Notes under the pieces: generated by a model | What the model saw: the letters and a program-made list of their open reading frames with translations, nothing else | Databases searched by the model: none | What the model was told of the DNA's origin: nothing | Shown here: positions 1,934-58,055 of the stretch, piece after piece | Layout of the letters: each line of letters begins with the position of its first letter | How positions within the stretch are numbered: the first letter of the stretch is position 1 | NCBI RefSeq assembly: GCF_002260525.1 | Contig: NZ_MRYI01000002.1 | Span: 248,001 to 312,000, forward strand | Source: Hahella sp. CCB-MM4 | Lineage (GTDB): Bacteria; Pseudomonadota; Gammaproteobacteria; Pseudomonadales; Oleiphilaceae | Direction of reading: 5' to 3' | DNA: 64,000 bases | Made by a program: the position numbers and the translations under genes

Positions 1934-2350
1934 CTATCGTTTTGTGATGCTTGAATAACCTGAGAGCAGGCTATTAATAGTGTCCACTTGGTTCGCCAGC
2001 ATCTCCATGGATTCCTCGAAACTCTGTAGCTGACAATCATCGACCTGAAGTCTTTGATATAAGGTGAGCCCTCCTTTCTCATTCAACGACAAGACACAAC
2101 CGGAACTGAAGCTATCCAGTAAAGCTTGTTGCATCACATGCTTGTATACCTGATCCCTTTCCTCGGACAGTTCGGACACAACCCCCAGCTCCACTTGAAG
2201 GTAAATAGAAGAAGCATTGCAAAAGCAACGAACCTCGATGTGATCGACAAAAAGCACATAATGCAGGTTGGCATCCGGCTGGATCATGGCCACCCGGTGG
2301 CGCAGGCAGAAGTTATAGAGCAGGCTTTCAAAGTGGGCATATTTGTACAC
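1934..2350 (-). CDS. CesT/ExsC-like type III secretion chaperone
   Basis: A 138-residue acidic protein starting with GTG six bases after AAGGAG. Size, acidity and the order (N-terminal helix, beta strands around HYVLFVDHIEV and IYLQVELG, then a LTLYQRLQ strand and a C-terminal helix) fit class I T3SS chaperones. The layout most resembles ExsC, the anti-anti-activator chaperone of the Pseudomonas regulon. It lies 47 bp downstream of the MalT-type regulator on the same strand and is probably cotranscribed. No substrate gene is adjacent, unlike the other chaperones here, which favours a regulatory or orphan role. That role is an inference. Confidence 0.6.
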   Translation of the reverse strand: MYKYAHFESLLYNFCLRHRVAMIQPDANLHYVLFVDHIEVRCFCNASSIYLQVELGVVSELSEERDQVYKHVMQQALLDSFSSGCVLSLNEKGGLTLYQRLQVDDCQLQSFEESMEMLANQVDTINSLLSGYSSITKR

Positions 2351-2397
2351 GTTTAACTCCTTGTATAACTATTTCAGAATGGCAGATGAGCTTTATC

Positions 2398-5148
2398 TCA
2401 GGCGGTGGCTCCGAGGTACTTATTAATGGCTGCTACCCGATTGCTGGCGCCAAGCTTTCTATAGATATTGTGGACATGTATTTTTACCGTCCCCAATGAG
2501 CGACATAGGGTGTCGGCAATCTCCGGGTTGGACATTCCCGTCACCAACAAATCCAGAACCTGCTTTTCCCGTTTGCTTAAGGAAGACAGGGTTGGAAGTT
2601 CATCATCTACAGGCGCAGATTCACCACTGAGACGCTCAAGCAGTTTCGTAACGTAGGCAGGATATCGTCCATGACTCTGCGCTTGAGCCAGCAATGTTCG
2701 AACCTCAGGAACACCTGTCATGAATGAGGAGATACTTCCCATCATCCGTCCGACGCCCAATGCATCATGGAAGACATTCAGCGCTTTCTCCTCCCGCCCA
2801 ATGCGTTTCAAGGCAACGGACTCGGCAATCAGCGAGCGCAACAGAAATAGATCAGCCCCGCATTCAACCGCCCAATCTTTGACCTGGATAGCACAAGTCA
2901 TGGCCTCCCGGGGTTTATCCATCGCCATATAGACATCAGATCTGGTCAACCATTCATGCATAGAGGTCACGCTGGCGGTGCCGAGCTTCCCTCCAAACAC
3001 ATCCAATTGATGGAGCGCTTCTTCCTTTCTGCCTTTTGCCAGCAGCCATTCAGCTCTGAGCCCTGCCACGGAGAAAAAATTCCTACGAACAATCTTCGGC
3101 ATCTCCTGCGCCAATAGGTCAGCCTCATCAATTGCTAATTCCGCTTTACGAAAACTCTCCCGGCTGATATCAATGCGCGCCTGAATCAACAACAGATTGA
3201 ATCGGAGATCCATTGGTATGGAGGCCTCATAGGAGAACAGGGCTTCCCGCAGATAATGCAAAGCGTGATCATGCTCCCCGTTTTCAAGACAACCATAGGC
3301 CATGGCCCCATTCATCCAGCCAGCATTGCCTCCGTCACCAGTGATGCCGGATATTCTTTCTTTCACTGAACGACAGAAAGTGTGCCATTGTTCGAAATCC
3401 CCACTGATATAGTGTGTCCATCCGAGTGCGGCCACTGACTGGTAAAACGCTGCCTGCTGGGATAGCAAGGCTTGCTCAACCACCCGCGTCAGAGTGATTT
3501 TCGCTTCACTGAACTGATTTCGGTACAGTGAGTCGAGCCCCTGACAAAGAACCGTGTGTAAACACCCGCTCTCACCGCTATTCCCACTCTCACCACTATC
3601 CGCACTACTCCTACCATCACCACTACTCTCTATGTCTTGTGTACTTTGGGCCGGACTGATCAACTCATGAAAATAAGCCGATTGAAGGTTCTTACTCAGC
3701 ATCCTGACTTCCTTCAGCAGCTGATGTTGCGAAGCAACAGAATACAAATCATCCGGATGGTCAATCGGATTGCAGGCTATCAATATCTCATCTGCCCGCT
3801 CCAAAAAGCCCAGGGCTTTGGCAGGCAAACATTCAAAGTGAGCTTTCCAGGCTTGTAACATCAGTAATAGGGGGCGCTGTCGACTAATGTGATCCGGAAT
3901 CAGCTCAAACCATTCTGTGATTTCTGCCCACCTTCCAGAGCAAGCGAGTATTTGATACTGCTTTTCAATCATATGGACAGCTGATTGCCAATAGCTGCTC
4001 TCAACACACAATGTAATGGCTTCATACAACTTGTTGTTGGCAAGAAACCACCGAAAAGCCTTCGTAAAGGTCATTATTCCCATGTGGGTTTTCCGCCACT
4101 CCCGGTGTTGCTTCAGATAGTCCCGAATCGGCCGCAGAATGCGATAGTCGCCCTGAGACTCCGGTATTTTGGCGACGATGCCATAAAAGCCAACAAGCTC
4201 CTGAAAGTCTTGATGAGATCCTTCGGGGCAAAAACATTGAGTCACCGAGATCCGATTGAATCGATGAATCTGGGACAAACTCATCAGCATTTCCATATGC
4301 TCAGGACTGAGCGGCTGTATCAGTTGATCTTCAATGTATTCCCCGAACTCAGGATAATCCGCAAGCTGCTCAAAGCCGGCGGTACCCGGACCTTGCTTCA
4401 ACCACCGGGCCACCATTCCACAGAAGAAAACCGGCCATCCTTCTGTCTGACGCCATAGGGAGGCCAATCGGGTGCTCTGCCCGGCTGGACTGGAAGTGGT
4501 ATACCATCCGTAGGCCCCCTTTTCCTCAAGCGCCTGTATAAACTGTTGACCTTCCTCCAAGGTGAAAGCCAAATCGTTCGAGCATAATTGTTCTATTCTG
4601 TCGCAGGGAAGCAGAGCAAATAAGTCTGATGGAAGGCGGGTTCTGGAGAGCATATAGAGACTGATATCAGCAGGAAGAAACCGGAGAACGCGGGCCAGGG
4701 AATCGATAACGTCCAGGTTATCCAGAAGTTGAAGGTCATCGATGACCAGCATAACGGGTTCTTCGACCTTACCGACCGCCTCTTCGATCTCATTCACGGT
4801 CTGGCTGATCCAGCTGTCACTACCGACCTCATCATTATGACAGGCCATCAGATCCTTATGGGTAGGTGTCTGGTAGCCCTGCTCCGCAAATGCCATGAGA
4901 ACTCCGCACCAAAACCTGTATGGATCGTTGTCATCGGACTCCATTGTGATCCAGACAACTTTCGAGCGTTGCCGTTGGCTCCACTCCCTCATCAGGGTCG
5001 TCTTGCCATATCCCGCCGGTGCAATAATGCTGTGGAGTTGTGACCTGCTACCGACATCGAGAAGTCGATGCAGCCGTTCCCGTGAAACCACTACCGGGGA
5101 GGCTAACGGTGCAGAAAACTTCCCCTTGAAATACAGCCCTTTTTCCAT
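2398..5148 (-). CDS. MalT-type LuxR family transcriptional regulator (ATP-dependent)
   Basis: A 916-residue protein, the usual MalT size. Residues 43-51 form a Walker A loop (APAGYGKTT) and 134-140 a Walker B (LVIDDLQ), marking a STAND ATPase. A long helical TPR-like region follows, and residues of about 850-912 are a LuxR-type HTH (LSKREKQVLDLLVTGMSNPEI and the following recognition helix). A low-complexity Ser/Gly/Glu/Asp linker interrupts the helical region near residues 505-527. The gene is divergent from the translocon operon and upstream of an ExsC-like chaperone, so it is the best candidate for the T3SS activator. The inducer is unknown. Confidence 0.85.
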   Translation of the reverse strand: MEKGLYFKGKFSAPLASPVVVSRERLHRLLDVGSRSQLHSIIAPAGYGKTTLMREWSQRQRSKVVWITMESDDNDPYRFWCGVLMAFAEQGYQTPTHKDLMACHNDEVGSDSWISQTVNEIEEAVGKVEEPVMLVIDDLQLLDNLDVIDSLARVLRFLPADISLYMLSRTRLPSDLFALLPCDRIEQLCSNDLAFTLEEGQQFIQALEEKGAYGWYTTSSPAGQSTRLASLWRQTEGWPVFFCGMVARWLKQGPGTAGFEQLADYPEFGEYIEDQLIQPLSPEHMEMLMSLSQIHRFNRISVTQCFCPEGSHQDFQELVGFYGIVAKIPESQGDYRILRPIRDYLKQHREWRKTHMGIMTFTKAFRWFLANNKLYEAITLCVESSYWQSAVHMIEKQYQILACSGRWAEITEWFELIPDHISRQRPLLLMLQAWKAHFECLPAKALGFLERADEILIACNPIDHPDDLYSVASQHQLLKEVRMLSKNLQSAYFHELISPAQSTQDIESSGDGRSSADSGESGNSGESGCLHTVLCQGLDSLYRNQFSEAKITLTRVVEQALLSQQAAFYQSVAALGWTHYISGDFEQWHTFCRSVKERISGITGDGGNAGWMNGAMAYGCLENGEHDHALHYLREALFSYEASIPMDLRFNLLLIQARIDISRESFRKAELAIDEADLLAQEMPKIVRRNFFSVAGLRAEWLLAKGRKEEALHQLDVFGGKLGTASVTSMHEWLTRSDVYMAMDKPREAMTCAIQVKDWAVECGADLFLLRSLIAESVALKRIGREEKALNVFHDALGVGRMMGSISSFMTGVPEVRTLLAQAQSHGRYPAYVTKLLERLSGESAPVDDELPTLSSLSKREKQVLDLLVTGMSNPEIADTLCRSLGTVKIHVHNIYRKLGASNRVAAINKYLGATA

Positions 5149-5596
5149 TTTCGTCGTCCTGTTTTGTTCTGGTTATTATCAGCTTTGTGTATATCGAGCT
5201 GAGGCCACCTACACCTCGCAGGTCTGCATCTGAACTGGATACTTGCTCCAACACACCATCCCTTTGAACATCCTTTTGTTGCCGGCGGTTTAAGCGTCCC
5301 ACAGGTAGTCCTCACGCGATGTACGACACCAGATTCAAAAAAGTTACATGTAATGGGAATTTTCATGACACCGTTCACATTCGTTGATTTTTTCATCAAT
5401 CGCTCAAACTCATATCGAATCCTCGAAGCGGCCGAAAAATAAGCCGGTGGATATATGTCCACTGCCCCCTCCTTCCAAAATACTGAACTTACGAGCCGCA
5501 GTAGTCTCGATCACGGTTCGTTATTCATCTTCACTGTGGCGGGCTCATCACTAACGAAGTGGCTCGCCGTTACTTATTGGATAAGGGGAAAACTCC
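5149..5596. promoter_or_regulatory. Divergent promoter region between regulator and translocon operon
   Basis: A 448-bp gap with no convincing gene. It must hold promoters for the minus-strand regulator and the plus-strand translocon operon. Two visible elements are a 12-bp direct repeat, CATCCCTTTGAA then CATCCTTTTGTT (5258-5281), which resembles the CATCCC half of MalT boxes, and a hairpin in the leader of the translocon operon (5538-5568). Confidence 0.55.
5538..5568 (+). promoter_or_regulatory. Leader hairpin of the translocon operon
   Basis: Outer arms GGCGGGC (5538-5544) and GCTCGCC (5562-5568) pair with one G-U. Inner arms CACT (5549-5552) and AGTG (5558-5561) close a 5-nt loop, leaving a 4-nt bulge on the 5' side. 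It ends 28 nt before the first ATG and could affect translation or mRNA stability. No T-run follows, so it is not a standard terminator. Confidence 0.35.
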
Positions 5597-6160
5597 ATGG
5601 ACCAAATAGGCACAATCACTTCACTGGGCAGTGATAAATTCCTGGTAAACGATACCGTCATGAGCATTGACGAACTCATCATGCTTCTTGAGCTTGAGCG
5701 GGTTGATAGTCTGGAACAGCAGTTGGCAGATGAGCTGCAAAGCATGGCAGAACTGAACGATCTTCTGAAAGAAGCCAATAAGATGCTTTCCATCGCCCGA
5801 ACTGAAAAAGGCAAGCTGGAAGGCAAAGGCCATAGCGATATGCCTCCTGAAATGATCGATTTCTTTGAAGATCATGATGTCCAACAGGGCCTCAGTAAAT
5901 ACGACAAAGAGCACAAAGGAGTGGCACACGGCAATAAATATCTCGACGATGAGGGCTACGATTTTTGTCAGAACAGCGACGAGTGGGAAACCAGCATCGA
6001 AAACCTGAAGGCTTTTATCGACGGCTTAAATAGTCGAAGTCAGGTCCAAATGCTTCGCATCAGTTCACTCATCAAAAAACGCGATGAGTCCCTCACCATG
6101 CCTTCCAACACCAACAACAGTCTCCACCAGACCAACCAGGGAATTCTCAACAAGATTTAG
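5597..6160 (+). CDS. Candidate T3SS needle-tip or EspA-like filament protein
   Basis: A 187-residue helical protein without signal peptide, first gene of the translocon operon. An N-terminal coiled coil (about residues 25-75) and a C-terminal helix (about 140-187) flank a middle region rich in Asp/Glu/Lys. The C-terminal helix carries the pattern of hydrophobic and Asn/Gln residues seen in EspA, SseB and LcrV-type tip proteins. No other tip-protein gene exists in the window, and the next genes are LcrG-, LcrH-, YopB- and YopD-like. Yersinia LcrV is much longer (about 326 residues); EspA is about 192. The assignment rests on position, size and helix pattern, not clear homology. Confidence 0.5.
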   Translation: MDQIGTITSLGSDKFLVNDTVMSIDELIMLLELERVDSLEQQLADELQSMAELNDLLKEANKMLSIARTEKGKLEGKGHSDMPPEMIDFFEDHDVQQGLSKYDKEHKGVAHGNKYLDDEGYDFCQNSDEWETSIENLKAFIDGLNSRSQVQMLRISSLIKKRDESLTMPSNTNNSLHQTNQGILNKI

Positions 6161-6257
6161 CAATGAATTCTCTCACCCGGAACGGGCATGCAGAACTCTC
6201 GCAGAAGCTGAGAGTTCTGCATAAAAGTCTTCATAGCGATGCCCTCAGGAGGCATTT

Positions 6258-6566
6258 ATGGCAACCGATACAGAATCACTCTCTTATCAACTGATGGAGG
6301 AAATGGAAAAACTGCAGGCGTCAGTCTCAGCGTCATTCCTGAAGACCAACACCTTGCTCGAAAGATATGGATTAAGCCGGGAGTTACTGGGTCCGCTGAT
6401 CAGTAAATACAGACCCCAACTACCGGACTCAGTCCTGGCAAAGCTGGAAAAGCGGGATAGAGAGTGGCGGGACGAGCTGGAACAGGAGCTCAATGGGAAC
6501 AGCAACCAGCAGTTTACCAGCCCTCGAAACAGACTGCTTCGCATCAAATTACTGGAACACATTTAA
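6258..6566 (+). CDS. LcrG-like needle-tip chaperone/regulator (candidate)
   Basis: A 102-residue helical protein preceded by AGGAGG. It resembles LcrG/PcrG in size and in arrangement: an N-terminal coiled helix, a short YGLSRELL segment, a charged KLEKRDREWRDELEQ helix, and a C-terminal Pro-Arg-Asn plus hydrophobic tail. LcrG-type proteins bind the tip protein and help keep secretion off before contact. Position between the tip candidate and lcrH supports the call. Gene order is swapped relative to Yersinia, where lcrG precedes lcrV. Confidence 0.5.
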   Translation: MATDTESLSYQLMEEMEKLQASVSASFLKTNTLLERYGLSRELLGPLISKYRPQLPDSVLAKLEKRDREWRDELEQELNGNSNQQFTSPRNRLLRIKLLEHI

Positions 6567-6585
6567 GCAAAACGAGGATATGTCA

Positions 6586-7086
6586 ATGAACCAGAACTCG
6601 CAGGATCATCAACAGACCTGTTCAGCTGATGAGATGATTGCCTTGATTCTCGAACAGGGAGGTACTCTGGCCCTGGCCAAAGGTCTCACTCAAGAGGAAA
6701 TCGAGGCGATCTATACCATCGCCTATAACCTCTACCAACAACGCAAGTTTGAGCAGGCTGAGCAAGTCTTCACATTTCTCTGCCTCTACAGCCACCTTGA
6801 TGTTCGCTTCTGGGTTGGCCTGGCAGCCAATAGGGAGGCCCTTGGCAAATTTGCGACCGCTATTGAGGCCTACTCCTATTCTGCCCTGCTCCAGCACGAC
6901 AATCCCATACCACCATTACAGGCAGCCAAGTGTTATATGGCTCTTAATAATCTGGAACAGGCCCGGAATGGTTTGAATGCGGCAATTCACTGGTCACAGG
7001 ATAAGCCCCAGCACCAGGCCATATTGGGCAAAGCACAATTGCTGCTTAAAAAAATTAACGACCTTGATAAGAGGACGAAGATATGA
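6586..7086 (+). CDS. lcrH: LcrH/SycD-type TPR chaperone for translocators (SctB/SctE chaperone)
   Basis: A 166-residue protein; LcrH is 168. The start at 6586 is preferred because GAGGA lies 7 nt upstream; the ATG at 6580 would leave 1 nt. It contains the class II chaperone signature: three TPR units including YTIAYNLYQQRKFEQAEQVF and FWVGLAANREALG. It binds the two hydrophobic translocators before secretion. Its stop overlaps the next gene's start (ATGA), indicating translational coupling to the YopB-like translocator. Confidence 0.88.
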   Translation: MNQNSQDHQQTCSADEMIALILEQGGTLALAKGLTQEEIEAIYTIAYNLYQQRKFEQAEQVFTFLCLYSHLDVRFWVGLAANREALGKFATAIEAYSYSALLQHDNPIPPLQAAKCYMALNNLEQARNGLNAAIHWSQDKPQHQAILGKAQLLLKKINDLDKRTKI

Positions 7087-8186
7087 GCACTATAGGAACT
7101 TTTGAAACCGATATAGGAACTTTCGAAACCGACTCGCTGGCTTCTTCATTAGTCGAGCTTCTGCAATCCCAAATACCGACTTCACAATCGTCACGCGCTC
7201 AGGACAATTTCGTCTGGGAAGGTTATGTCGAAGGAAGTCAGAATACTGAGAACTCGACTCTGGTGTCACTTTCCTCTCCCAAACCCGGCACGGACCTGCT
7301 TTTGTCGTTACAAACGATTCAACTGAAGCTTGATGAACAAGGCATCACCCGTGGCAAAGAGGATGTACTGCAACTAGCCCAAAACAATAAGGAACGACAC
7401 AAGGAAGTCATGGAAGCCATTCAAAAAGCCATCGCTGAGATGGAGAGAGCCCAGAAGTCCGGCAAAATTGCCAAGGCCTTCGGCTGGATTGCCGCTGCAG
7501 CCACATTAGTCGCAGGAGCATTGCTTATGGCCACCCCCGGCGGAGCAGTTGCCGGAGCCATTATGATCGGGCTCGCGGTGGACCAGACAGTTGGCATGAT
7601 AACCGGTAAAAGCGGGTTATCGGAACTCACCGCGAAGATCGCCGAAGGACTGCAGAAAGCGGGCATGAAAGAACCGGGTAACACCATCTTTGCCACTGTA
7701 CTGGTGGCAGCCATCCTGATCGTAGCAACCGCCGGGGCCGGGTATATGGGCACGGCTTCCTCCTCTGCCAGTAAAGCATCCACGGTTGCTTCGACTTCAG
7801 GTAAAGCAGCCTCTTCTGCTTCGTCCACGGCCGGCGAAGCGGCTGCAGTAGCGTCTACGGCGGGTAAAACAGGAACAGCAGTCATCCAGTGGCAGATGGT
7901 TCTCCACCAGGCCAGAAACATTTCTGTTTTTGTTGGGGGCGCAGCAGAGTTTGGGGGCGCCGGAGCCAGCATAGACAGCGCAGTACACGTGCAGGAAGCT
8001 GAATTTTCCAGGGCCGACGAAGCAAGGGTCCGCAAGGTCATCAGCCAGAATAAAGCCTATATCGAGAACACCATTGATCACATCAAGAATTTGACCCAAA
8101 ACAGTGAGAGCACCATGGGTCAGATGATCGATCAGGTTAACCAGCAAGAGCAGACCAACCAAAAGCTAAATCGGGACATGGCCTGA
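7083..8186 (+). CDS. YopB-like T3SS translocator (SctE)
   Basis: A 367-residue pore-forming translocator. Two hydrophobic helices, GWIAAAATLVAGALLMATP (about residues 137-155) and TIFATVLVAAILIVATAGAG (about 201-220), are separated by a loop as in YopB/PopB. A coiled coil precedes them, and a Ser/Ala-rich region and an amphipathic C-terminus follow. It inserts in the host membrane with the YopD-like partner. The N-terminal secretion region holds an exact seven-residue duplication, IGTFETD twice (21-bp units at 7092-7112 and 7113-7133). Confidence 0.82.
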   Translation: MSTIGTFETDIGTFETDSLASSLVELLQSQIPTSQSSRAQDNFVWEGYVEGSQNTENSTLVSLSSPKPGTDLLLSLQTIQLKLDEQGITRGKEDVLQLAQNNKERHKEVMEAIQKAIAEMERAQKSGKIAKAFGWIAAAATLVAGALLMATPGGAVAGAIMIGLAVDQTVGMITGKSGLSELTAKIAEGLQKAGMKEPGNTIFATVLVAAILIVATAGAGYMGTASSSASKASTVASTSGKAASSASSTAGEAAAVASTAGKTGTAVIQWQMVLHQARNISVFVGGAAEFGGAGASIDSAVHVQEAEFSRADEARVRKVISQNKAYIENTIDHIKNLTQNSESTMGQMIDQVNQQEQTNQKLNRDMA

Positions 8187-8240
8187 CAGATGTAGCTTCA
8201 ACTGCAATGATCAATCCTTTTCTTTTAGAGGTCAGAAATT

Positions 8241-9230
8241 ATGGATTCAACTAATCGAATAACAGACCCAACCACACAACGGACCGGCAATTCAGACAAC
8301 TTTGAAGACTTTAGTCTGACAAACCGCTTCCGGGAACAGGAAAATATCCCACTGATATCCCGCTCTAACGAGTCCGGCACAGAGCAAGACAGCACAAGTG
8401 ATGTGACCATTCTGCCACCTCCCTCTATTCAGGGGGATGATTTCGATGCCGGCAATCTCAGGTCTAAACTGGAGGGACCTTACGGTGGCTTTGATATCTT
8501 CAACATTTTTGCAGTCGTCCACGAGATATTAGCCGAAATGCGTCGCCAGGCCAGTGAGTCTAAACAAGACGCTTACCTTGCACAATGGACCGCATTCGAA
8601 GCAAAGGCTGAAAAAATCGTTAGCGCAGCAAAAAAGGATTTTACTGCGGCTATGGTGAATGGTGGCATGTCCATGGCGGGTGGAATCTGCGGTATGCGCG
8701 CCGGATATTCCGCCTCTAAGCAGACCCGAAATGCCATGAAACTGGATACGGACGTTCCCAAGGCGCCGCAAATCGGATTGGATGATGTATCTCCAACCAG
8801 GCCCACGACTGACCTATCCCCGGACTTGGCCGTACTTGGACCGAATGCGCAAGTCAAGAACGGTGATTCCAGCAATCCGCCCCCTGCCAGCAATAAGGAC
8901 ACTGGAGCAGATACTCCCTCTAGAGAAAGTGTCCAGTTCAAACAACAGGCCATGATCACACAGGCACAAAACACCACCAATACGGGTATGGCTTTGGGCC
9001 AGTTCTTCACTGGAATGGGCAGCATTATTTCCTCAATACCAACCTATTTTGCAGAGTTGGACCGGGCAGCCAAAGAGCGGGATGAGGCCGATGCGACAAA
9101 AGCGCAAGCCGATGTTGAAAGTGAAGCGGATTTTGTGAGATCGGCCGCAGAAGGTGAAAAGGCCATCAGGGATTCCATGGAGCAGTTCATCACTTCAAGA
9201 TCCCAGATCAATATTAAGCTCATGGCTTAA
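8241..9230 (+). CDS. YopD-like T3SS translocator (SctB)
   Basis: A 329-residue protein; YopD is 306. It has one moderately hydrophobic segment near residues 133-155 (MVNGGMSMAGGICGMRAGYS), a Pro/Asp/Asn-rich middle, and a C-terminal amphipathic helix after a Gly/Ile-rich GMGSIISSIP stretch. Position after lcrH and the YopB-like gene makes it the minor translocator. Family similarity is weak in primary sequence, as is usual for YopD proteins. A terminator follows at 9311-9336. Confidence 0.72.
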   Translation: MDSTNRITDPTTQRTGNSDNFEDFSLTNRFREQENIPLISRSNESGTEQDSTSDVTILPPPSIQGDDFDAGNLRSKLEGPYGGFDIFNIFAVVHEILAEMRRQASESKQDAYLAQWTAFEAKAEKIVSAAKKDFTAAMVNGGMSMAGGICGMRAGYSASKQTRNAMKLDTDVPKAPQIGLDDVSPTRPTTDLSPDLAVLGPNAQVKNGDSSNPPPASNKDTGADTPSRESVQFKQQAMITQAQNTTNTGMALGQFFTGMGSIISSIPTYFAELDRAAKERDEADATKAQADVESEADFVRSAAEGEKAIRDSMEQFITSRSQINIKLMA

Positions 9231-9416: not shown

Positions 9417-9523
9417 CTTATTTGTACCTACTGATTAGATTTATATCTACCGGTCTATTTGCATCAACGTCTCAGAAATTAACACTAGACCCAAGTGAAA
9501 CAACCATCGATACAGGTCCATTC

Positions 9524-10648
9524 ATGTCGAATATTCCCGTAGGAATAACATCGCAGCCCGGCAGAAGCTTCGCCGCTGAAGACGCTCAGGCCCAGCCCGC
9601 CGGACAATGGCGGGGAGAAAGTGTGGCACTGGCGGGTTCTGATAAATCTCTATTTGCCTCTGCTGCAGAAGAGATGTCTTTCCTGCGTTCGGAAAAGAAG
9701 GAAGTCGACCTGAGTAAACGGAAAATAGGAGAACGTTCACCTTTGCGGGCAGAAGCGCTGGAACGAGCCCTCGCCTACCTGGAAAAAGCAGCAGATCTCG
9801 ATAAGGACAAGCAACTCAACCCCTTCGTCAAACAACTACTCGATCAGCCAATATCCTCAAGCACACACCTTCGGCAACTATTGCAGCGGCAATTTGAAGA
9901 TGTCTCACAGCAGTACATGGCCCTCGCCTACGTACGGGACCAGCTTAGACGCAAGCTAAAACAGCGTAAATCTGAATCCATCGAACAACTCCTGGCCATG
10001 GTCGATACCGCTCTGGATGAACTGATGGATGAGAGCGGGGTGGCGATTCAGGCTGGAATGAATGTAACCGGAATCGCGGCGAGCTATGCCGATAGACAGC
10101 TGGGAACGCTAAACAACTTGCGCCGTCTCTACCGTGATGCGGTATTAGACTACGGTAGCCTTACTGGAACGTTTCAAAAGATCCTGGCCCAGTATGGAGA
10201 GGAGCACTTTTCTGATTCTCTCACCTACCTGATTTCGGCACTGGGTGCAGATCTGGCTGCAGAAGGTCCGTCGCTCCCCAAAGAAAGGCTGGAAATGATC
10301 ATCGAGGATCTCTACAAGCTGCATTCCCTGGAAAGCCTGAATGACGAATGCTCTGAGTTTCTCTCGCAGCTGCAGCGGATTTACCAGTCATACAGCATTC
10401 CCGGAAGGCTGAAGCTGATGGAACAACTACTGGGGCTTCTTGAAAAGAAATGGCTCAGTACAGACCAAACAAGCAAAGTCATCGAAGCATTAAATATTCC
10501 CGGAGATATGGCGATTTATTTCTGGCGGGGATTTAAGGAATTGATTCGTCTGATTCCGCTGAAGGTCTACAAAGACCCCTTCGAGCGGGAAAAACTGATT
10601 TCCGCAGTCCAGGAGTGCCTGGATCTCTGTATCGAAAATGAAGAGTAA
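9524..10648 (+). CDS. sctW: T3SS gatekeeper, natural YopN-TyeA fusion (SctW)
   Basis: A 374-residue protein from the ATG at 9524 (CAGGT 6 nt upstream); longer TTG-started frames run through tandem repeats. The first roughly 280 residues are helical and match the YopN/HrpJ gatekeeper layout. The last roughly 85 correspond to TyeA: LLEKKW, FWRGFKELIRLIPLKVY and LDLCIENEE align with the TyeA motifs KRW, the RLFPLGVF region and AIESEE. In Yersinia these are two genes; here they are one. The protein blocks effector release until contact and orders translocators before effectors. Its likely chaperone SycN is next. Confidence 0.85.
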   Translation: MSNIPVGITSQPGRSFAAEDAQAQPAGQWRGESVALAGSDKSLFASAAEEMSFLRSEKKEVDLSKRKIGERSPLRAEALERALAYLEKAADLDKDKQLNPFVKQLLDQPISSSTHLRQLLQRQFEDVSQQYMALAYVRDQLRRKLKQRKSESIEQLLAMVDTALDELMDESGVAIQAGMNVTGIAASYADRQLGTLNNLRRLYRDAVLDYGSLTGTFQKILAQYGEEHFSDSLTYLISALGADLAAEGPSLPKERLEMIIEDLYKLHSLESLNDECSEFLSQLQRIYQSYSIPGRLKLMEQLLGLLEKKWLSTDQTSKVIEALNIPGDMAIYFWRGFKELIRLIPLKVYKDPFEREKLISAVQECLDLCIENEE

Positions 10649-10687
10649 TTATCTCAAAACAGACAATATCAACAAGGGAGTTCAATC

Positions 10688-11065
10688 ATGATACAGGCGC
10701 CAGCCATCGGCCACACCCTCAACGAGTTTCTATATCAGATTGGCTTTACAGATTTTACCTGGCATGGCGCACCTTTGACGCTGTCATTTGAGCATTCAGG
10801 TTCCCTTCATATGGAAATGACTGATCGGGGCCTGTTAATAGCACAGTTAAGAGAAATCAACGAGTACGACTCCGCAAATATCATCGCAAAAGCATTACGC
10901 CTGGTGCATTACGACAAGCCATTACCATTGGTCGTTCAGACAGGAATAAAGAGCCACAACCAGCTTGCCTTCATCACTACCCTATCCCCTCAACAGCTCA
11001 GCATTCCCGGGTTGACCGAAGCGGTAGGATTGCTGGAATACCTGCATCATAAAGTAACTCAATAG
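10688..11065 (+). CDS. sycN: SycN-like chaperone for the gatekeeper
   Basis: A 125-residue protein (SycN 123) preceded by AAGGGAG. Recognisable features are the N-terminal helix ending in a short Gly-rich turn, LTLSFEHSGSLHMEM, the KALRLVHYDKPLPL stretch, and the conserved C-terminal LSIPGLTEAVGLLEYLH. SycN normally works with YscB on YopN. No YscB gene is seen, so SycN may act alone or pair with another chaperone in the window. Confidence 0.72.
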   Translation: MIQAPAIGHTLNEFLYQIGFTDFTWHGAPLTLSFEHSGSLHMEMTDRGLLIAQLREINEYDSANIIAKALRLVHYDKPLPLVVQTGIKSHNQLAFITTLSPQQLSIPGLTEAVGLLEYLHHKVTQ

Positions 11066-11077
11066 GTGCGTTGATCT

Positions 11078-11470
11078 ATGGACCTGGTGACCTTTACAGA
11101 AGGCATACAAAGCATACACGTACAGGAAAGTGGCGCGTCTCCTGTCGATACAACGCCTTCGAAACCTTTTGTTCCTCTGGGCGAATCCGTCGTACAACAT
11201 ACCGAAGCGCTGTTTACGCCTCACTCCACCAACCGGGATATATTGCGCTCACTCCTCATACCGGCCAGTCATGAAGGTGTTGATCCCAATGAATACGATG
11301 CCCTGTCTTCAACGACGCTTGCGGCATTGCTGAATATGAAACCTCATTCAACAGATCAAAAGGACTCTGCGTTTCTTCGAACCCTGAAACGGGCTCTGGA
11401 TGTCCTCGATTCATTGGAACAGGACAGACAACTGTTAAAAAGCAACCTGACGGCACTGGAGAAAGTGTGA
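11078..11470 (+). CDS. sctX: YscX-like early T3SS substrate (SctX)
   Basis: A 130-residue protein (YscX 122). The N-terminal EGIQSIHV, the PLGESVVQHTEALF segment and the C-terminal helix [28 protein letters not shown] pattern parallel YscX. YscX and YscY are found only in Ysc-type systems and interact with YscV. The gene overlaps sctY by 4 nt (GTGA). Confidence 0.72.
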   Translation: MDLVTFTEGIQSIHVQESGASPVDTTPSKPFVPLGESVVQHTEALFTPHSTNRDILRSLLIPASHEGVDPNEYDALSSTTLAALLNMKPHSTDQKDSAFLRTLKRALDVLDSLEQDRQLLKSNLTALEKV

Positions 11471-11826
11471 ATAAGGATCTCAGGACAGAAGACATACTCA
11501 ACCCACAACAGTATGACTGGCTAAGCGGCGTAGCAACGGTATATCTGCAAACCAGGCAATATGCCAAAGCACAGCCGCTTTTATCGCTACTGGTCAGACT
11601 CTATCCGAGTGATCAGAAGCCGCTTATGCAACTAGCCTATCTCCACTACTTACAGGGAAATGCGGAACAGGCACTGAAGTGCTGTGATCGATGTGAGAGT
11701 AGTGCACAGGGCGTAAAAGACCGCCGACTCTATTTGCTTCGATCTTTCTGTCACTTAAAGCTGGGAAATAAAAACCTGGCTACGGACAACTACCACTACT
11801 TTTCGGCTTCGAGGATGATGCCATGA
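11467..11826 (+). CDS. sctY: YscY-like chaperone of YscX (SctY)
   Basis: A 119-residue TPR protein (YscY 114) starting with GTG inside the sctX stop. TPR helices are at [20 protein letters not shown] and [18 protein letters not shown]. It also overlaps the following sctV start by 4 nt. Position between sctX and sctV is the same as in Yersinia and Pseudomonas. Confidence 0.8.
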
Positions 11827-13907
11827 ATCTTGCCCGCCTGACCCCCACCCTGCATATGCTCTCCGGTCGCAAAGACGTGTTGTTTGCAACCATGCTGGTG
11901 GCGGTTATTTTCATGATGATCCTGCCCCTCCCTACCGGATTGGTGGATGTTCTTATCGGCATCAATATGGGGCTCGCCGTTGTACTGCTAATGGTCGCGG
12001 TATACCTGCATTCTCCACTGGAGTTTGTCGCATTTCCCTCAGTCCTGCTGATTACGACACTGTTCCGTCTTTCACTCTCGATCACCACAACGCGATTGAT
12101 TTTATTGCAGGCTGATGCCGGGTCCATTATCGAGGCATTCGGCAGCTTTGTGGTCGGCGGAAACCTGGTCGTCGGGTTGGTAATCTTCCTGATCATCACC
12201 GTGGTTCAGTTTCTGGTGATCACTAAAGGCTCCGAACGGGTCGCCGAAGTGAGTGCCCGCTTTTCTCTGGATGCCATGCCCGGCAAGCAGATGAGCATCG
12301 ACGGCGACATGCGCGCTGGCGTAATCGATGTTGATGAAGCCAGGCATCGGCGTTCACAGGTACAAAAAGAAAGCCAGCTTTACGGCTCGATGGATGGTGC
12401 CATGAAATTCGTGAAGGGCGATAGTATTGCCGGTCTGATCATTATCGCGGTGAATATACTGGGGGGCATTGCCATAGGCACACTACAGAACGGCATGACC
12501 TCAGGCGAAGCCCTGGAACTCTATGCCATCCTGACCATCGGCGACGGCCTTGTGGCCCAGATTCCCGCTCTGTTCATTGCCATTACTGCCGGGATTATCG
12601 TAACCCGGGTCACTACGGATGAATCTGAAAATCTGGGGGCTGATATCGCCAATCAGATCTCCGGCAAGCCCCAGGCCATTTTGATCGGTGGGGGGCTGCT
12701 ATTTGCGTTCGCCTTGATTCCCGGCTTTCCAACGTTCACATTCATTGCACTGGCAGTGACATTGCTCACTGCCGGGTACATGATCCTCAAGAAGTCACGG
12801 GCAACAGCAGACCGTGATCACAGGCCACTCACCGCGATGGCTGCGGCAGGGCAGCCTCCGACCAGAGCACAACTGAATGAGGCGGAAGAGTTCACCTTCA
12901 CGGTCCCCCTGATGGTCGACTTGGCTGCGGATGCAGAAGAGGCCCTGGATACCAACGAGCTGAATGAGGAAATCCTCAAGATACGCCGCGCGCTCTATCT
13001 GGACTTGGGCGTCCCTTTTCCCGGCATACATCTACGCATCAATCATTCGCTGAGCGGCGGCTGCTACCGGATACATCTTCAGGAAACGCCTATCGCGGAG
13101 GGGGAAATCAGACCTCGACAGATTTTGGTCAGAGACCAGAAGGAACAGCTGGAGCTTCTCTCCATTGAACATCAAAGCGAAGTGGAGTTACTACCCAATG
13201 TACCCGCCTACTGGGTGGAACAGAGCCATCGTTCCTCGCTGGAGAGAATGGAAGTCGCCTATCTGACGCCACCGCGGGTACTGAGCTATCACCTTTCCAT
13301 TATCCTGAAAAAATACGCCCAGGACTTTATCGGTATCCAGGAAACCCGTTTTCTGCTGGAAAAAATGGAAGATCGATATGGAGAATTGGTTAAGGAAGTA
13401 CAGCGTTTACTGCCCATCCAGAAAATCACTGAGATTTTCCAGCGCCTGGTTTCCGAGGACATCTCTATCCGTAACCTGCGTAATATTCTGGAAGCGCTGG
13501 TGGAATGGGGGCAGAAGGAAAAAGAAACCGTTTTACTGACCGAATATGTCCGCAACAACCTTCGCCGCTACATCAGCTACAAATACAGCAATGGCCAGAA
13601 TGTCCTGCCGGGGTATTTACTGGATCAATCACTGGAAGACTGCATACGTAACGGCATCCGACAAACATCCGCCGGCGCTTACCTGGCCCTGGACCCGGAT
13701 ACGACCCGTCAGATCGTCGAAGTCACTCGGAAGACCGTCGGAGATATCCATCAGACAACTCACAAACCTGTACTCATCACCTCAATGGATATCCGCCGCT
13801 ATATGAGAAAGTTATTGGAAAGGGAGTTACATCAGTTGCCGGTGCTGTCCTATCAGGATTTAACACCGGAGATTACGATTCAACCGTTGGGGAGAGTTGG
13901 GCTATAA
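11823..13907 (+). CDS. sctV: T3SS export gate protein SctV (YscV/LcrD)
   Basis: A 694-residue inner-membrane protein (LcrD about 704). Roughly the first 330 residues hold about eight transmembrane helices and the FHIPEP-family signature near residue 145-165 ([19 protein letters not shown]). The C-terminal cytosolic half forms the nonameric ring that receives substrate-chaperone complexes. It is the last gene of this operon. No clear terminator is visible before the convergent lipoprotein gene. Confidence 0.97.
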
Positions 13908-26332: not shown

Positions 26333-26334
26333 AG

Positions 26335-26808: not shown

Positions 26809-27088
26809 CTGAACGCACCCCGATTAATACAGAGTTCTTAGGTTAGCTCTCAGGTTCGGCACGCCCAATTGGCCTGTAGATCTATTTTTTGAGGTACGAC
26901 TTGTTTTGGGATAGGGGGCAAAGGTCTGGCACTTATTGTTCCACAGACCCTTCTTGTTGGGAGTTTTCTGATGATATCGCGGCTCTGCAGACTTCCATCC
27001 TGACACACCAATAAACACCATTCCAGTTCCAGGTCACCCGAATAATATTTGACTCATCCAGATGCTGAACCCACGACCAATACAGGCT
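26809..27088. other. Promoter region of the chaperone/effector 2 operon
   Basis: No gene is supported; a 65-codon frame at 26824-27021 lacks protein character. On the coding strand GCCCCCTATCCC occurs about 100-112 bp upstream of the chaperone start. Confidence 0.3.
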
Positions 27089-28029: not shown

Positions 28030-28447
28030 AGACTAACGCTTCGTCCTATCCTCACATCCTCCATGAAAAGCTAATACCGGCCTACCAGATTCAGGGGCTC
28101 TGAAACTTTGGCTTTCTATAAGAATTCAGATTCGTTGATTAATCCCTTATGTTTTATGAGTTTAGTATGAGCGTTGAAAAAGCGATAAGTTTGTTTGAGT
28201 TTGACGAGTTAGGGCGAGATTTAGACTGCCTTCATGACGGCTAGTGAAACGTCAATGAACATACTTTTTGGTTTTAATGCAGCTTTTTCATATGAGACCT
28301 GGATAAAGTCTCTTTAACTAATCGGAAACAATTTCAAAACCGCCCCCCCCCAAACTAGATCGCCCGGCCGATTATTTTCCCTTCATCCCTCACCTACCCT
28401 TTCCACCAACTACTGATATCAACCATCGTCAGCAACGTGGCATTGGG
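28030..28447. promoter_or_regulatory. Promoter region of the sctN-U operon
   Basis: A 418-bp gap. It contains a possible 25-codon frame (28167-28244, MSVEKAISLFEFDELGRDLD and five more residues) of uncertain reality, a run of nine C (28343-28351), a CTTCATCCCTCACC stretch (28381-28394) resembling a MalT-box core, and TTTCCACCAAC (28400-28410), which recurs before effector candidate 3. All are candidate control elements of this T3SS operon. Confidence 0.45.
28343..28351 (+). repeat. Homopolymer of nine C upstream of sctN
   Basis: An uninterrupted C9 run about 97-105 bp before the sctN start. Tracts of this kind slip during replication and, in promoters, can cause phase variation. Confidence 0.85.
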
Positions 28448-48244: not shown

Positions 48245-48868
48245 CTACCGATCCCCCAAGGCAGTTTCTATCAGTTCGTTCAGCCGGGCAAACTGATCAG
48301 ATATTGAGCACTTGATAATGCCGGCATCGCCTTCCAGAACACACATTTCGCGGGAAATCCGAGTGTCCGCAACGACTTCAAAATATTCGACACCGGGATG
48401 ATTTTCCTTAATCTGGGGGAGAGTGGCCTTTACCTTATTTTCCATTTCAGGCGCTACGCGTATCAGAACCCGGTAATCATTTCTCAATGAGGTGAGGCCG
48501 GACTGAATCATGCCGATCATTTTCTGCTCGTCGTCGATCCCGCCAAGTATTCGCTCCAGCGTCAGTTTGACCAATTGCACTAAATCCGTTTCCGCCATCT
48601 GCATCATCTGATTGGCCCGAATACGAGCGGTAATCAAACGTTCGGCACACTCCTGTCGGGCAATGGAGATGCCGTCTTTGTATCCATCCTGCAATACTTG
48701 TTCTGCCCGTTGTCTGGCTTGAGCCATGATGCTATCAGCCTCTTTTCTGGCAGCATCAAGCAGGTTGTTCGCTTCGAGCAGAGATTCATAATCAGCCGCC
48801 TTGATAATACCGCCATTTGGATTGACTCCTGCCGACAGCGGCTTGATTAAACTGTAACCGGTTTCCAT
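48245..48868 (-). CDS. sctL: T3SS stator protein SctL (YscL)
   Basis: A 207-residue protein (YscL 221-223). The N-terminal SLIKPLSAGVNPNGGIIKAADYE and the long alanine/glutamine-rich helix (LLDAARKEADSIMAQARQRA) match the family; the C-terminal domain binds SctN. The start lies inside sctK (22-nt overlap). Confidence 0.92.
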   Translation of the reverse strand: METGYSLIKPLSAGVNPNGGIIKAADYESLLEANNLLDAARKEADSIMAQARQRAEQVLQDGYKDGISIARQECAERLITARIRANQMMQMAETDLVQLVKLTLERILGGIDDEQKMIGMIQSGLTSLRNDYRVLIRVAPEMENKVKATLPQIKENHPGVEYFEVVADTRISREMCVLEGDAGIIKCSISDQFARLNELIETALGDR

Positions 48869-49557
48869 TGTGGATTAATCTCCTGAGCGATCTTCAACAG
48901 CAAACCCTGGGCGCGCCCTTGGACTTCGAGAATCTGATGAACGTCATTAACATAGGCACGGAATCCGACCTGCCATTGGGATTGAATTTTTTCTGCATCT
49001 TTCTTATCGAAGAAATAGAGCATTCTCTGTATGGCAGGCTTCAACAGGTTGTTTGAAGCAAGTGACAGAAGCTTCAGCCCGGAATCAAATACTGCTGCCC
49101 TGGTCTCCTCCCCGCCCAGGAACTCCCATTCATCCAGGTTGATAGCCTTACACAGTGATCCCGCCATAAAAGGCGCTCTTTCGAGCGCGAAACGGTACCC
49201 TGGAATCCCCAGACTTTTCTTGATTTCCCGCTGTTGCTGGCCACAGATAATCTGTCTGATTCGGTGATGATTCAGCGCAAGCCCGGCATAAAGCACTACC
49301 TGACGGAAAGTATTTCCGGGAAGCAATAGCAATTGCAGCATCGGATCAGCAAACGATTCGGCTGGCACCTCCTCAAGAACTTCCGGTTGCTCCAACAGAA
49401 AACGGTTGAGGGTTCGGGTAGCTTCAGGGTTCGCTGTAATGGCAGCCAACTGCGGAGGGCTCAGCCACGGAGTCAACCAACTGGCATCCACATAACTCGC
49501 AGGCAGCCAATTAAATTTGGCCATCAGAATGAGCAGATCACTGGATATCATCGGCAT
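48847..49557 (-). CDS. sctK: T3SS sorting platform protein SctK (YscK)
   Basis: A 236-residue protein (YscK 209) with the family's helical pattern, including WLTPWLSPPQLAAITANPEAT and LPGNTFRQVVLYAGLALNHH. SctK links the sorting platform pods to SctD. Position between sctJ and sctL is conserved. Confidence 0.85.
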   Translation of the reverse strand: MPMISSDLLILMAKFNWLPASYVDASWLTPWLSPPQLAAITANPEATRTLNRFLLEQPEVLEEVPAESFADPMLQLLLLPGNTFRQVVLYAGLALNHHRIRQIICGQQQREIKKSLGIPGYRFALERAPFMAGSLCKAINLDEWEFLGGEETRAAVFDSGLKLLSLASNNLLKPAIQRMLYFFDKKDAEKIQSQWQVGFRAYVNDVHQILEVQGRAQGLLLKIAQEINPQWKPVTV

Positions 49558-49649
49558 TTCACCTTCTTTTCCGCTTTTCTATCCATCCCTTTCCGCCCCT
49601 TTCTACCTTAGTTAGCCATTCAGTCTTAACCAATGAGTCCGTCAGCCGA

Positions 49650-50447
49650 TTAAGCCTGACCTGCTGGAATCAGGTGGGTCTCACGTTTTCTAATCCGCAG
49701 GTACAGCAAAACATTGCCCGCCAGAGCGCCTGTCAGCAGAACCAGGACAATGCCAATCAGTGTATATAAACGGTCTGTAGAACTGGCCGCCACACTGATG
49801 GAAAAGACACTGTTCATCGTCTGGGACGGGTCATTGGAAGCAGATTGGGAAGGAAACAAGGCCACTGAAATATTGTCATAACTCAACCCTTCGATACTGT
49901 TATTGACCAACATTTTTATCTGCGGCACAAAGTCATCGAGATTGACGTTGCTGGCATATTTTATGAAAACTGACGCAGAGGAGACTTTCAGAGGCGCTTT
50001 CTTGCCTTCAACTTCGGGCATCACAACATGAACTCTGGCTGTAATGACACCATCCAACTGTGACAGGGTTGCCGCGATTTCCTGTGAAAGCCCATAAATA
50101 TACCGGGCCCGTTCTTCGAGGGGCGAGGATATCAATCCGTCTTTCTTGAACAACTCACCCACACTGGCAAAGTCGTCCCTCGGGAATCCTCGGCTTTTCA
50201 GAACCTGGATCGCCCTCGACAGATCCTCACCGTCTACCATCAAGGTTACCAGTTGCCCCTTCTGGTCAGATACCTTTTCGGTGTTGATTCCCCGCTCCAG
50301 GAGAATGGAAAGCATCTCATTGCCTTCTTTTTCAGTTAACCCTGAATATAGTTCTTCATTGCAACCTGAAAGCAGGATAAACAACGCCATAGCTAACAGG
50401 CGAAAAAGCATCATGGAATGGGTGTGTATTTCAGCAATGACTTTCAT
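49650..50447 (-). CDS. sctJ: T3SS inner-ring lipoprotein SctJ (YscJ)
   Basis: A 265-residue protein (YscJ 244). Signal peptide with lipobox LSGC (Cys29), then two ring-building motifs (ELYSGLTEKEGNEMLSILLE, VMPEVEGKKAPLKVSSASVF) and a C-terminal transmembrane helix (LIGIVLVLLTGALAGNVLLY). It starts 2 bp after the sctI stop. A second in-frame ATG pair at 50414 is a possible shorter start. Confidence 0.96.
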   Translation of the reverse strand: MKVIAEIHTHSMMLFRLLAMALFILLSGCNEELYSGLTEKEGNEMLSILLERGINTEKVSDQKGQLVTLMVDGEDLSRAIQVLKSRGFPRDDFASVGELFKKDGLISSPLEERARYIYGLSQEIAATLSQLDGVITARVHVVMPEVEGKKAPLKVSSASVFIKYASNVNLDDFVPQIKMLVNNSIEGLSYDNISVALFPSQSASNDPSQTMNSVFSISVAASSTDRLYTLIGIVLVLLTGALAGNVLLYLRIRKRETHLIPAGQA

Positions 50448-50449
50448 GG

Positions 50450-50860
50450 CTACTGACTCTTAAGCAGTGTATCCAGGTTCTGGGTGCTTTTACTGACCGT
50501 TTTATTGATGAGTTCGCCCTGCAAAGTCAGCTTGGCGAGATCAAATTGCAACTTCATCATGCTATTGATTCTCAGGGGATCGGTACCATTCATGGATTCC
50601 TGTACTGCACCTACCTGACGGTCATACCCGGACTTCATGTTCTGTAACCCCTGCAAGACTTTGTCTCCCAGAGAATTTCCGGCACTTTCCGCTGTGGTCA
50701 CGGCATCTATATTTCCATCACCAAGCCTAGAAGGGTCTGCCGGTTGCTGCAGACTATTCTGGAACTGCTCCACGGCCACACTATCCGCACCGACATTATT
50801 GCCAGCGCTCTGTTCGGTACTAAGAAGATTCAAACTGTACTGAATACTGATCGGCTCCAT
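50450..50860 (-). CDS. sctI: T3SS inner rod protein SctI (YscI)
   Basis: A 136-residue protein (YscI 115) with a disordered N-terminal half and an amphipathic C-terminal helix (LRINSMMKLQFDLAKLTLQG, then KTVSKSTQNLDTLLKSQ), the hallmark of inner-rod proteins. Position between the TPR chaperone and sctJ is conserved apart from the missing yscH. Confidence 0.82.
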   Translation of the reverse strand: MEPISIQYSLNLLSTEQSAGNNVGADSVAVEQFQNSLQQPADPSRLGDGNIDAVTTAESAGNSLGDKVLQGLQNMKSGYDRQVGAVQESMNGTDPLRINSMMKLQFDLAKLTLQGELINKTVSKSTQNLDTLLKSQ

Positions 50861-50895
50861 ATTTCACCTGTCTTGTCCTGCATTGATGGGCGGGT

Positions 50896-51503: not shown

Positions 51504-51504
51504 G

Positions 51505-51690: not shown

Positions 51691-51732
51691 GGCTCTTTAC
51701 CGCAATATTGATTATTCAAGACCATATCCCGG

Positions 51733-53204: not shown

Positions 53205-53216
53205 ACATCCACCGGT

Positions 53217-57978: not shown

Positions 57979-58007
57979 GCGACTTCGATTATTCGCATTG
58001 AAGTCGC
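57979..58007 (+). terminator. Hairpin between the RTX-like paralogs
   Basis: GCGACTTC (57979-57986) pairs perfectly with GAAGTCGC (58000-58007), directly after the stop; a T5 run lies 8 nt downstream. Probably a partial terminator or mRNA stabiliser. Confidence 0.5.
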
Positions 58008-58055
58008 CAACACACTTTTTATCTCTATCGAGTCACAATAGATCAAGGAATCAAC

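What the first reader, a model, noticed from the sequence alone, without database searches (positions are those of the whole stretch)
1934..5148. MalT-type regulator paired with an ExsC-like chaperone as a possible new T3SS control circuit
Ysc-type systems are normally controlled by an ExsA/LcrF AraC-family activator, with ExsC-ExsD-ExsE sensing secretion. This window has none of ExsA, ExsD or ExsE. It has a 916-residue STAND-ATPase LuxR regulator divergent from the translocon operon, followed 47 bp later on the same strand by a class I chaperone with no adjacent substrate. The chaperone could sequester or release the regulator according to secretion, a different wiring of the same logic. The gene layout is seen; the circuit is inferred.
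Basis: partly seen in the sequence, partly recalled or inferred. Interest (0 to 1): 0.8.

Follow-up and report, generated by a model that had tools for sequence, protein, structure and literature searches.

The report
Two-step switch for bacterial injection machine
In marine Hahella bacteria, a large MalT-type regulator gene beside a protein-injection machine carries the same 27-base promoter element as a sigma-factor operon, and one DNA box recurs at the machine's operon promoters, so the sigma factor likely turns on the regulator and the regulator would turn on the machine, while the chaperone beside it is likely an ordinary gatekeeper helper rather than a new sensor.

Summary
The layout is as described: a 916-aa MalT-type STAND/LuxR protein (REG) divergent from the translocon operon, then after 47 bp a class I chaperone. 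The ExsC-like circuit is not supported. The chaperone is most likely YscB, SycN's partner for the gatekeeper SctW: YscB is its best NCBIfam match (weak), and in a distant relative (45_16_T64) the order is REG-chaperone-sctC-sctD, the pscB slot. Hahella apparently split that operon and left yscB beside REG.

Among 7 Hahella genomes REG occurs in exactly the 6 with this T3SS. Its promoter holds a 27-bp ECF-type element whose only other exact copy in the genome heads an RTX-RTX-sigma-RskA anti-sigma operon in this window. A dyad box (about TANATCNNCCGGNNGAT) gives the six top sites in 64 kb: upstream of sctN, REG/translocon, sctD, sctW, sctC and a chaperone/effector pair; it reaches threshold nowhere in 174.5 kb around T3SS loci lacking a neighbouring REG. 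ExsA_N (7 Hahella) and ExsD (own genome) were not found.

Best model: ECF sigma -> REG -> T3SS operons. Shared motifs and co-occurrence are shown; binding and activation are inferred.

The parts
2398..5148 (-). REG: 916-aa MalT-type STAND/TPR/LuxR-HTH regulator; Walker A and HTH conserved in orthologues
1934..2350 (-). class I (CesT-fold) chaperone, most likely YscB
5322..5348 (-). ECF-type promoter element of REG, TGTAACTTTT-N13-CGTA
   Evidence: exact upstream of REG in 6 of 6 Hahella with this T3SS, one mismatch in G425
5439..5455 (-). putative REG box between REG and the translocon operon
   Evidence: score 23.6
5597..9230 (+). translocon operon: tip-like protein, small ORF, LcrH/SycD chaperone, SctE, SctB
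9442..9458 (+). putative REG box of the sctW operon; it lies inside the longest reading of sctW (TTG 9371), so a start near ATG 9524 is inferred
   Evidence: 21.1; TATATCCACCGATCTAT exact upstream of sctW in 5 other Hahella and G425
9524..13907 (+). sctW-tyeA fusion, sycN (10688-11065), sctX, sctY, sctV
   Evidence: start of sctW inferred
26868..26884 (-). putative REG box of a chaperone/effector-like pair (26335-26808 and 25391-26332)
   Evidence: 17.4; not among the training promoter classes
28356..28372 (+). putative REG box of the sctN-U operon (28448-34935)
   Evidence: 24.0
48245..54983 (-). sctC, sctD, sctG, sctI, sctJ, sctK, sctL operon; no yscB ahead of sctC
53204..53220 (+). putative REG box in the sctC-sctD gap
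   Evidence: (22.2), 84: a site in the same gap in the 5 other Hahella and G425; not among the training classes
55056..55072 (-). putative REG box of the sctC operon (shared with the divergent effector-like gene 55231-56271)
   Evidence: 20.3
56976..57002 (+). second exact copy of the ECF-type element, heading the RTX/sigma operon
57064..59003 (+). two exported RTX-repeat proteins (57064-57978, start approximate; 58056-59003, lipoprotein-like N terminus)
59060..59626 (+). ECF sigma factor
59611..60363 (+). RskA-type anti-sigma factor with one hydrophobic segment (residues 101-119)

Best explanation
REG is a MalT-architecture regulator that likely is the cluster's own activator: it would be transcribed from the ECF-type element shown in its promoter by the sigma factor encoded at 59060-59626, and would then bind the dyad box shown at the T3SS operon promoters and turn those operons on, while the chaperone beside it is likely YscB. 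Shown: REG's architecture; one 27-bp element upstream of both REG and the sigma operon; one box at sctN, REG/translocon, sctD, sctW, sctC and a chaperone/effector pair; co-occurrence of REG, box, sigma orthologue and this T3SS in Hahella. Inferred: that this sigma reads the element, that REG binds the box, and that the effect is activation. The membrane-anchored RskA-type anti-sigma would hold the sigma until an unknown envelope signal arrives. YscB with SycN would chaperone the gatekeeper SctW; its place beside REG would be what is left of an ancestral REG-yscB-sctC...sctL operon.
For: REG: >1,400 bits in 6 of 58 relatives, next best 304 bits; all 6 are Hahella with this T3SS, and Hahella G003, which has no YscX or YscD match, has no such REG. 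ECF element: 13 exact copies in 8 genomes, 13 of 13 upstream of REG (6) or of the sigma/RTX genes (7), about 0.05 expected per genome; 0 exact in G003. Sigma orthologue of 316-411 bits in the same 6 genomes, at most 143 bits in G003. Box: 18 exact pattern matches in the 6 genomes, all at T3SS operon promoters, 0 in G003; at one mismatch the only G425 hit in the genome lies directly before its sctN. With each promoter class left out of training, its sites still rank 10-30 of 567,600 positions. With training on other genomes the six best sites in the window lie at T3SS promoters; 40 random 64-kb sequences peaked at 18.4 against 17.4-24.0 here. At threshold 15.5: 0 hits in 200,386 control bases. 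YscB: best NCBIfam model for 8 of 8 orthologues tested, 27-33 bits; top genome-wide hit of the YscB model in 6 of 6; REG-chaperone-sctC order in G425; a CesT chaperone before sctC in the second T3SS of the own genome and before sctD in G255.
Against: No binding, transcription or mutant data. The box pattern was drawn after seeing most of its sites, so its exact matches in Hahella are partly by construction. For the ECF element at <=1 mismatch the reversed control pattern matched more often (41 against 23): the case rests on exact copies and where they lie. Six of 29 box matches at <=1 mismatch lie off the T3SS. In G425 the box before REG is weak (10.1), its sctN site falls under the 15.5 threshold, and 3 of 5 distinct hits there are not at a clear T3SS operon start. 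MalT itself binds other, non-dyad boxes (recalled). The sigma/RTX operon also occurs in G010 without a YscX match, and lies about 0.3 Mb from the T3SS in G001 and G005. YscB scores are far below the 90-bit cut-off; a G043 chaperone next to an 1136-aa ORF scores 24.6; PDB YscB 1xkp_C is not significant (E 0.74); Foldseek ranks YscB 2nd and ExsC 3rd. G425 has 3 ExsA_N matches on contigs other than its T3SS contigs.
Confidence: 0.68

Rival explanations
1. One reading: the chaperone is ExsC-like and sequesters or releases REG according to secretion.
For: REG and chaperone are adjacent in 7 of 7 genomes examined, even where yscB and sctC are separated. Foldseek puts ExsC 3rd, close behind YscB. A class I chaperone acting on a T3SS regulator has a precedent: BtcB and the anti-sigma BtrA in Bordetella (PMC10732220, abstract and passages).
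Against: YscB is the best NCBIfam match in 8 of 8 orthologues tested. The chaperone sits in the yscB slot in G425. SycN and SctW partners are in the window. No ExsD match in the own genome. One ancestral rearrangement explains the adjacency.
Confidence: 0.1
2. REG lies beside the T3SS but regulates something else; the box belongs to another regulator.
For: No functional data. MalT's known sites are not dyads (recalled). One box lies in REG's own promoter region, which fits REG being a target of that other regulator.
Against: REG and box co-occur: none in G003, and no box hit in T3SS loci without a neighbouring REG. REG leads the sctC operon in G425. Dyads are usual for dimeric LuxR-type HTH domains (recalled).
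Confidence: 0.15
3. REG is a repressor or fine-tuner, and an unseen activator drives the T3SS.
For: Box position (60-166 bp before most starts) does not by itself tell activation from repression.
Against: MalT and its large LuxR relatives are known as activators (recalled). In G425 REG is the first gene of the sctC operon.
Confidence: 0.1

Closest known systems
ExsA/ExsC/ExsD/ExsE control of Pseudomonas Ysc-type T3SS
   Same: A cluster-linked regulator with a common box at the operon promoters; in exsD-pscBCDEFGHIJKL a regulatory gene precedes pscB-pscC (PMC8903896, passages), as REG precedes chaperone-sctC in G425.
   Different: No ExsA_N (7 Hahella) or ExsD (own genome) match; activator of MalT type instead of AraC type; a different box; an ECF sigma upstream; the chaperone looks like YscB, not ExsC.
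Bordetella BtrS/BtrA (ECF sigma and its anti-sigma) control of the bsc T3SS
   Same: A T3SS placed under an ECF sigma/anti-sigma pair (PMC10732220, abstract and passages).
   Different: BtrA is a secreted antagonist and BtrS acts on the btr/bsc genes; here the anti-sigma is RskA-type with a hydrophobic segment, and the sigma is predicted to act through a MalT-type regulator.
MalT and other large ATP-binding LuxR-type regulators
   Same: NTPase + TPR + C-terminal GerE HTH; 8bob MalT is the top PDB match by sequence profile and by fold; MalT domain III 1hz4 covers the TPR part (TM 0.71 on the target).
   Different: Below the MalT equivalog cut-off, linked to a T3SS, and predicted to use a different box.
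YscB/PscB-SycN/Pcr2 chaperone pair of YopN/PopN
   Same: YscB is the best NCBIfam model; slot before sctC in G425; SycN and SctW present; PscB-PopN and Pcr2-PopN are listed as known pairs in PMC13092808 (passages).
   Different: Weak score (under cut-off); in Hahella the gene sits behind REG instead of before sctC.

Membership tests
YscB/PscB gatekeeper chaperone | class I chaperone fold | tested here: met
   CesT above cut-off; AlphaFold model pLDDT 85.5, matches YscB 1xkp_C TM 0.77/0.83
YscB/PscB gatekeeper chaperone | NCBIfam TIGR02513 above its cut-off | tested here: not met
   best family in 8 of 8 orthologues tested but 27-33 bits against 90.05; so it is called likely YscB by slot and ranking, not filed by the model
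YscB/PscB gatekeeper chaperone | gene directly before sctC | tested here: inconclusive
   met in G425; not in the window or the 5 other Hahella
YscB/PscB gatekeeper chaperone | forms a heterodimer with SycN and binds SctW | not testable with these tools
   both partners are encoded at 9371-11065
ExsC | binds ExsE and ExsD | tested here: inconclusive
   no ExsD match in the own genome (no positive control); ExsE not searched; fold alone fits ExsC nearly as well
MalT | STAND NTPase + TPR + LuxR HTH architecture | tested here: met
MalT | NCBIfam MalT equivalog cut-off | tested here: not met
   185 against 537 bits: MalT-type, not MalT
ExsA-controlled Ysc T3SS | ExsA-type activator in the genome | tested here: not met
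   ExsA_N 0 of 7 Hahella; AraC gene beside the second T3SS is FtrA-like
ECF sigma with RskA-type anti-sigma | sigma r2/r4 domains, RskA_C domain, overlapping genes, shared promoter element | tested here: met
ECF sigma with RskA-type anti-sigma | the sigma transcribes from the element and the anti-sigma inhibits it | not testable with these tools
   inferred from autoregulation-like placement

The most novel reading that the evidence does not exclude
A wholly different input for a Ysc-type T3SS: an envelope signal, perhaps calcium bound by the two exported RTX proteins, releases the ECF sigma from its RskA-type anti-sigma, the sigma makes the MalT-type activator together with the gatekeeper chaperone YscB, and YscB freed when SctW leaves feeds back on the activator, so that both outside signal and secretion state set T3SS expression without any Exs protein.
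Probability: 0.12. Interest if true: 0.85.

Novelty: new variant of a known kind. Interest (0 to 1): 0.6.

Why it matters
If right, a Ysc-type injectisome that is usually read as ExsA/LcrF-controlled runs on an ECF sigma factor and a MalT-type activator instead, with a defined DNA box. That makes the control of the H. chejuensis T3SS (two Ysc systems 'of unknown function' in PMC3459982, passages) directly testable, offers the box as a way to list further operons, and shows the exsD/pscB position as a place where regulators may be exchanged while the machine stays the same. It also shows how an orphan chaperone can look like a new circuit when it is a displaced gatekeeper chaperone.

Tried and rejected
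ExsC-like reading: rejected as the main reading for the reasons above; fold comparison did not separate YscB from ExsC, and a profile search of the PDB gave only insignificant matches, YscB 1xkp_C at E 0.74 behind chance hits. ExsA for the second T3SS: the AraC gene at C129:70156 was suspected because it is near, but is FtrA-like with a DJ-1/PfpI part. YscB score alone: a G043 chaperone beside an 1136-aa ORF also has YscB as top model (24.6 bits), and the chaperone in the yscB slot of T3SS-B does not match the YscB model, so the identification leans on gene order and ranking. Motif counts: at <=1 mismatch the ECF pattern is not enriched over its reversed control; only exact copies and their places were used. 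A first core ATCNNNNGGCTGAT with up to 2 mismatches was too loose. G425 box hits near an NhaA antiporter and a redoxin gene were taken as likely chance. Protein homologue searches found 3, 6 and 12 proteins (in one search only the 7,994 candidates sharing most words were scored); P0008 and P0010 probably share one JGI contig, which was not read. Papers: 9 searches; four papers seen as passages, the rest as listings. For a MalT-type T3SS regulator: searches returned 0 papers, 76 one (title and abstract start only), 46 eighty of which 20 were listed, none on this by title; for Hahella with ECF sigma and T3SS, one search returned 0; for RskA with T3SS, three listings. The REG model has pTM 0.43 and was used only for domain-level comparison.
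Full report
What is there. The two genes of the finding are as described. The window also holds a Ysc-type T3SS, here T3SS-A: translocon genes 5597-9230, sctW-tyeA/sycN/sctX/sctY/sctV 9371-13907, sctN-U 28448-34935, sctC-L 54983-48245. A second Ysc-type system, T3SS-B, lies on contig 129 of the same genome.

The chaperone. Its best NCBIfam family is YscB, 29 bits against a 90-bit cut-off. The same holds for 8 of 8 orthologues tested (27-33 bits; P0004 was not tested). Searching 10 whole genomes with the YscB model, the top hit in each of the 6 Hahella with T3SS-A is this chaperone (28.3-35.1 bits), and G003 has none. The three other chaperones of the window match SicP weakly or nothing. In Gammaproteobacterium 45_16_T64 (G425, locus L009) the order is REG, chaperone, sctC, sctD, sctG, sctI-L, with overlapping ends. 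This is the place that pscB has in exsD-pscBCDEFGHIJKL (PMC8903896, passages). T3SS-B has its own CesT chaperone directly before sctC, and G255 has one before sctD, 25% identical to ours. SycN and SctW, the expected partners, are in the window. Against: the scores are weak; a G043 chaperone next to an 1136-aa ORF also has YscB as its top model (24.6 bits); the T3SS-B chaperone has no YscB match; one search missed the G255 gene that scores at 22 bits; the fold fits YscB (rank 2) and ExsC (rank 3) almost equally; the PDB profile search is not significant. On balance YscB is likely, about 0.8.

The regulator. REG is MalT-type by domains, PDB profile match (8bob, E 2.5e-31) and fold (8bob rank 1; MalT domain III 1hz4 TM 0.71 on the target; model pTM only 0.43). 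Orthologues above 1,400 bits were found in 6 of 58 relatives, all Hahella; the next best score was 304 bits (30 of 58 had some match at E<=1e-60). YscX was found in 7 of these 58 genomes: the same 6 and G043. In a class-wide draw of 369 genomes YscX was found in 3: G000, G219 and G255. REG was searched in G003, G043, G219, G255 and G425: only G425 has the orthologue (1,500 bits); G003 has paralogues of at most 145 bits; the three others have no match at E<=1e-20. So REG accompanies T3SS-A, not Ysc-type T3SS in general.

No Exs system detected. ExsD: none in the own genome (no positive control). ExsA_N: 0 of 7 Hahella, 3 matches over cut-off in G425 on contigs other than its T3SS contigs. Among 56 AraC-type HTH matches of the own genome one lies beside T3SS-B and is FtrA-like. 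ExsE was not searched.

Upstream element. Aligning the REG promoters showed TGTAACTTTT-N13-CGTA. A whole-genome search of 8 genomes at <=1 mismatch gave 23 matches; 13 are exact, and 13 of 13 lie upstream of REG (6) or of the RTX or sigma genes (7). In G006 the copy is 415 bp from the sigma gene. Of the 10 one-mismatch matches, 2 are on target: REG in G425 and sigma in G005. The reversed control gave 41 matches at <=1 mismatch, so the raw count is not enriched; the exact copies (about 0.05 expected per genome) and their places carry the argument. In the own genome the two exact copies are 5322-5348(-) before REG and 56976-57002(+) before RTX-RTX-sigma-anti-sigma. The sigma orthologue (316-411 bits) is in the same 6 Hahella; G003 has at most 143 bits; G010, without a YscX match, has one of 248 bits with the anti-sigma and an RTX gene. 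The sigma gene is near sctC in G000, G002 and G006, on another contig in G004, and about 0.3 Mb away in G001 and G005. G425 has a sigma/anti-sigma pair with RTX genes beside sctL and a second pair directly after sctU, each with a looser TGCAAC version of the element.

Downstream box. A dyad-like box recurs at T3SS-A promoters. With each of three promoter classes left out of training in turn, its sites still rank 10 to 30 of 567,600 positions. With a 17-base matrix from other genomes, the six best sites of the window are sctN 24.0, REG/translocon 23.6, sctC-sctD gap 22.2, sctW 21.1, sctC 20.3, chaperone/effector pair 17.4; 40 random 64-kb sequences had best scores of mean 13.9, maximum 18.4. 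Four of the six are orthologous to training sites; the sctD and chaperone/effector sites are not. At threshold 15.5 there are 34 sites in the T3SS-A loci of 6 Hahella (6 in the window, 28), 32 of them within 250 bp before a called ORF; the sctN site of G001 has its gene cut by the locus edge, and the window's sctW site implies a later start codon. No site reached 15.5 in 200,386 control bases: T3SS-B 70,000, T3SS contigs of G043/G219/G255 104,514, other own-genome loci 25,872. Genome-wide, the pattern AHHTANATCBVYVGGCYGATW has 29 matches at <=1 mismatch in 8 genomes: 18 exact, all at T3SS-A promoters, and 11 with one mismatch, 5 of them at T3SS promoters; G003 has none; the reversed control has 2 (places checked). 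The pattern was made after seeing most sites, so the independent parts are the absence elsewhere, the control, and G425, where the one genome-wide hit lies directly before sctN. G425 also has the sctW site exactly as in Hahella and a site before sctD (15.9), but a weak one before REG (10.1) and three hits at no clear T3SS operon start.

Mechanism. The simplest reading: the anti-sigma holds the ECF sigma at the membrane; a signal frees it; sigma transcribes its own operon and REG-yscB; REG binds the box and turns on the T3SS-A operons. Steps from sigma to REG and from REG to the operons are inferred from shared elements and co-occurrence. The signal is unknown; the co-encoded exported RTX proteins make calcium a candidate only.

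Known or new. ECF control of a T3SS is known (Bordetella BtrS/BtrA; PMC10732220, abstract and passages), and so are MalT-type regulators; nine literature searches showed no paper by title joining a MalT-type regulator to a T3SS, but most subscription journals are outside that library. I rate it a new variant of a known kind.

Noticed in passing
own genome contig 129, about 29.7-69 kb (L129, L130, L062, L063, L223): A second Ysc-type T3SS without a REG neighbour, without a box hit at 15.5 and without an ECF element at <=2 mismatches, with its own CesT chaperone directly before sctC.
   Followed up: partly
window 57064-60363: RTX-RTX-ECF sigma-RskA anti-sigma operon; also found, partly on a contig end, in G010, which has no YscX match.
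   Followed up: partly
L220 6658-7955 (G425): A second ECF sigma/RskA anti-sigma pair directly after sctU.
   Followed up: no
L064 5225-6471 (G043): ECF sigma/RskA pair about 6 kb from the sctV-sctX genes of a Ysc-type T3SS that has no REG.
   Followed up: no
window 16153-17577, 25391-26808, 55231-56773: Three chaperone/effector-like gene pairs; the two effector-like proteins scanned and the one match no Pfam family at the thresholds used.
   Followed up: partly
window 9371-10648: Gatekeeper SctW and TyeA are one fused protein; the box position suggests that translation starts near 9524.
   Followed up: partly
L066 11925-13387 (G006): The tip-like gene downstream of the REG promoter region is present twice, each copy with its own box.
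   Followed up: no
L136 13000-14815 (G006): sctC reads as two overlapping ORFs, a possible frameshift or sequencing error; only described.
   Followed up: no
upstream of sctC in G001, G002, G004, G005 (e.g. L139 1769-2773): A 332-334-aa gene with a box 108-111 bp before it; the G001 copy has no Pfam match; a candidate member of the regulon.
   Followed up: partly
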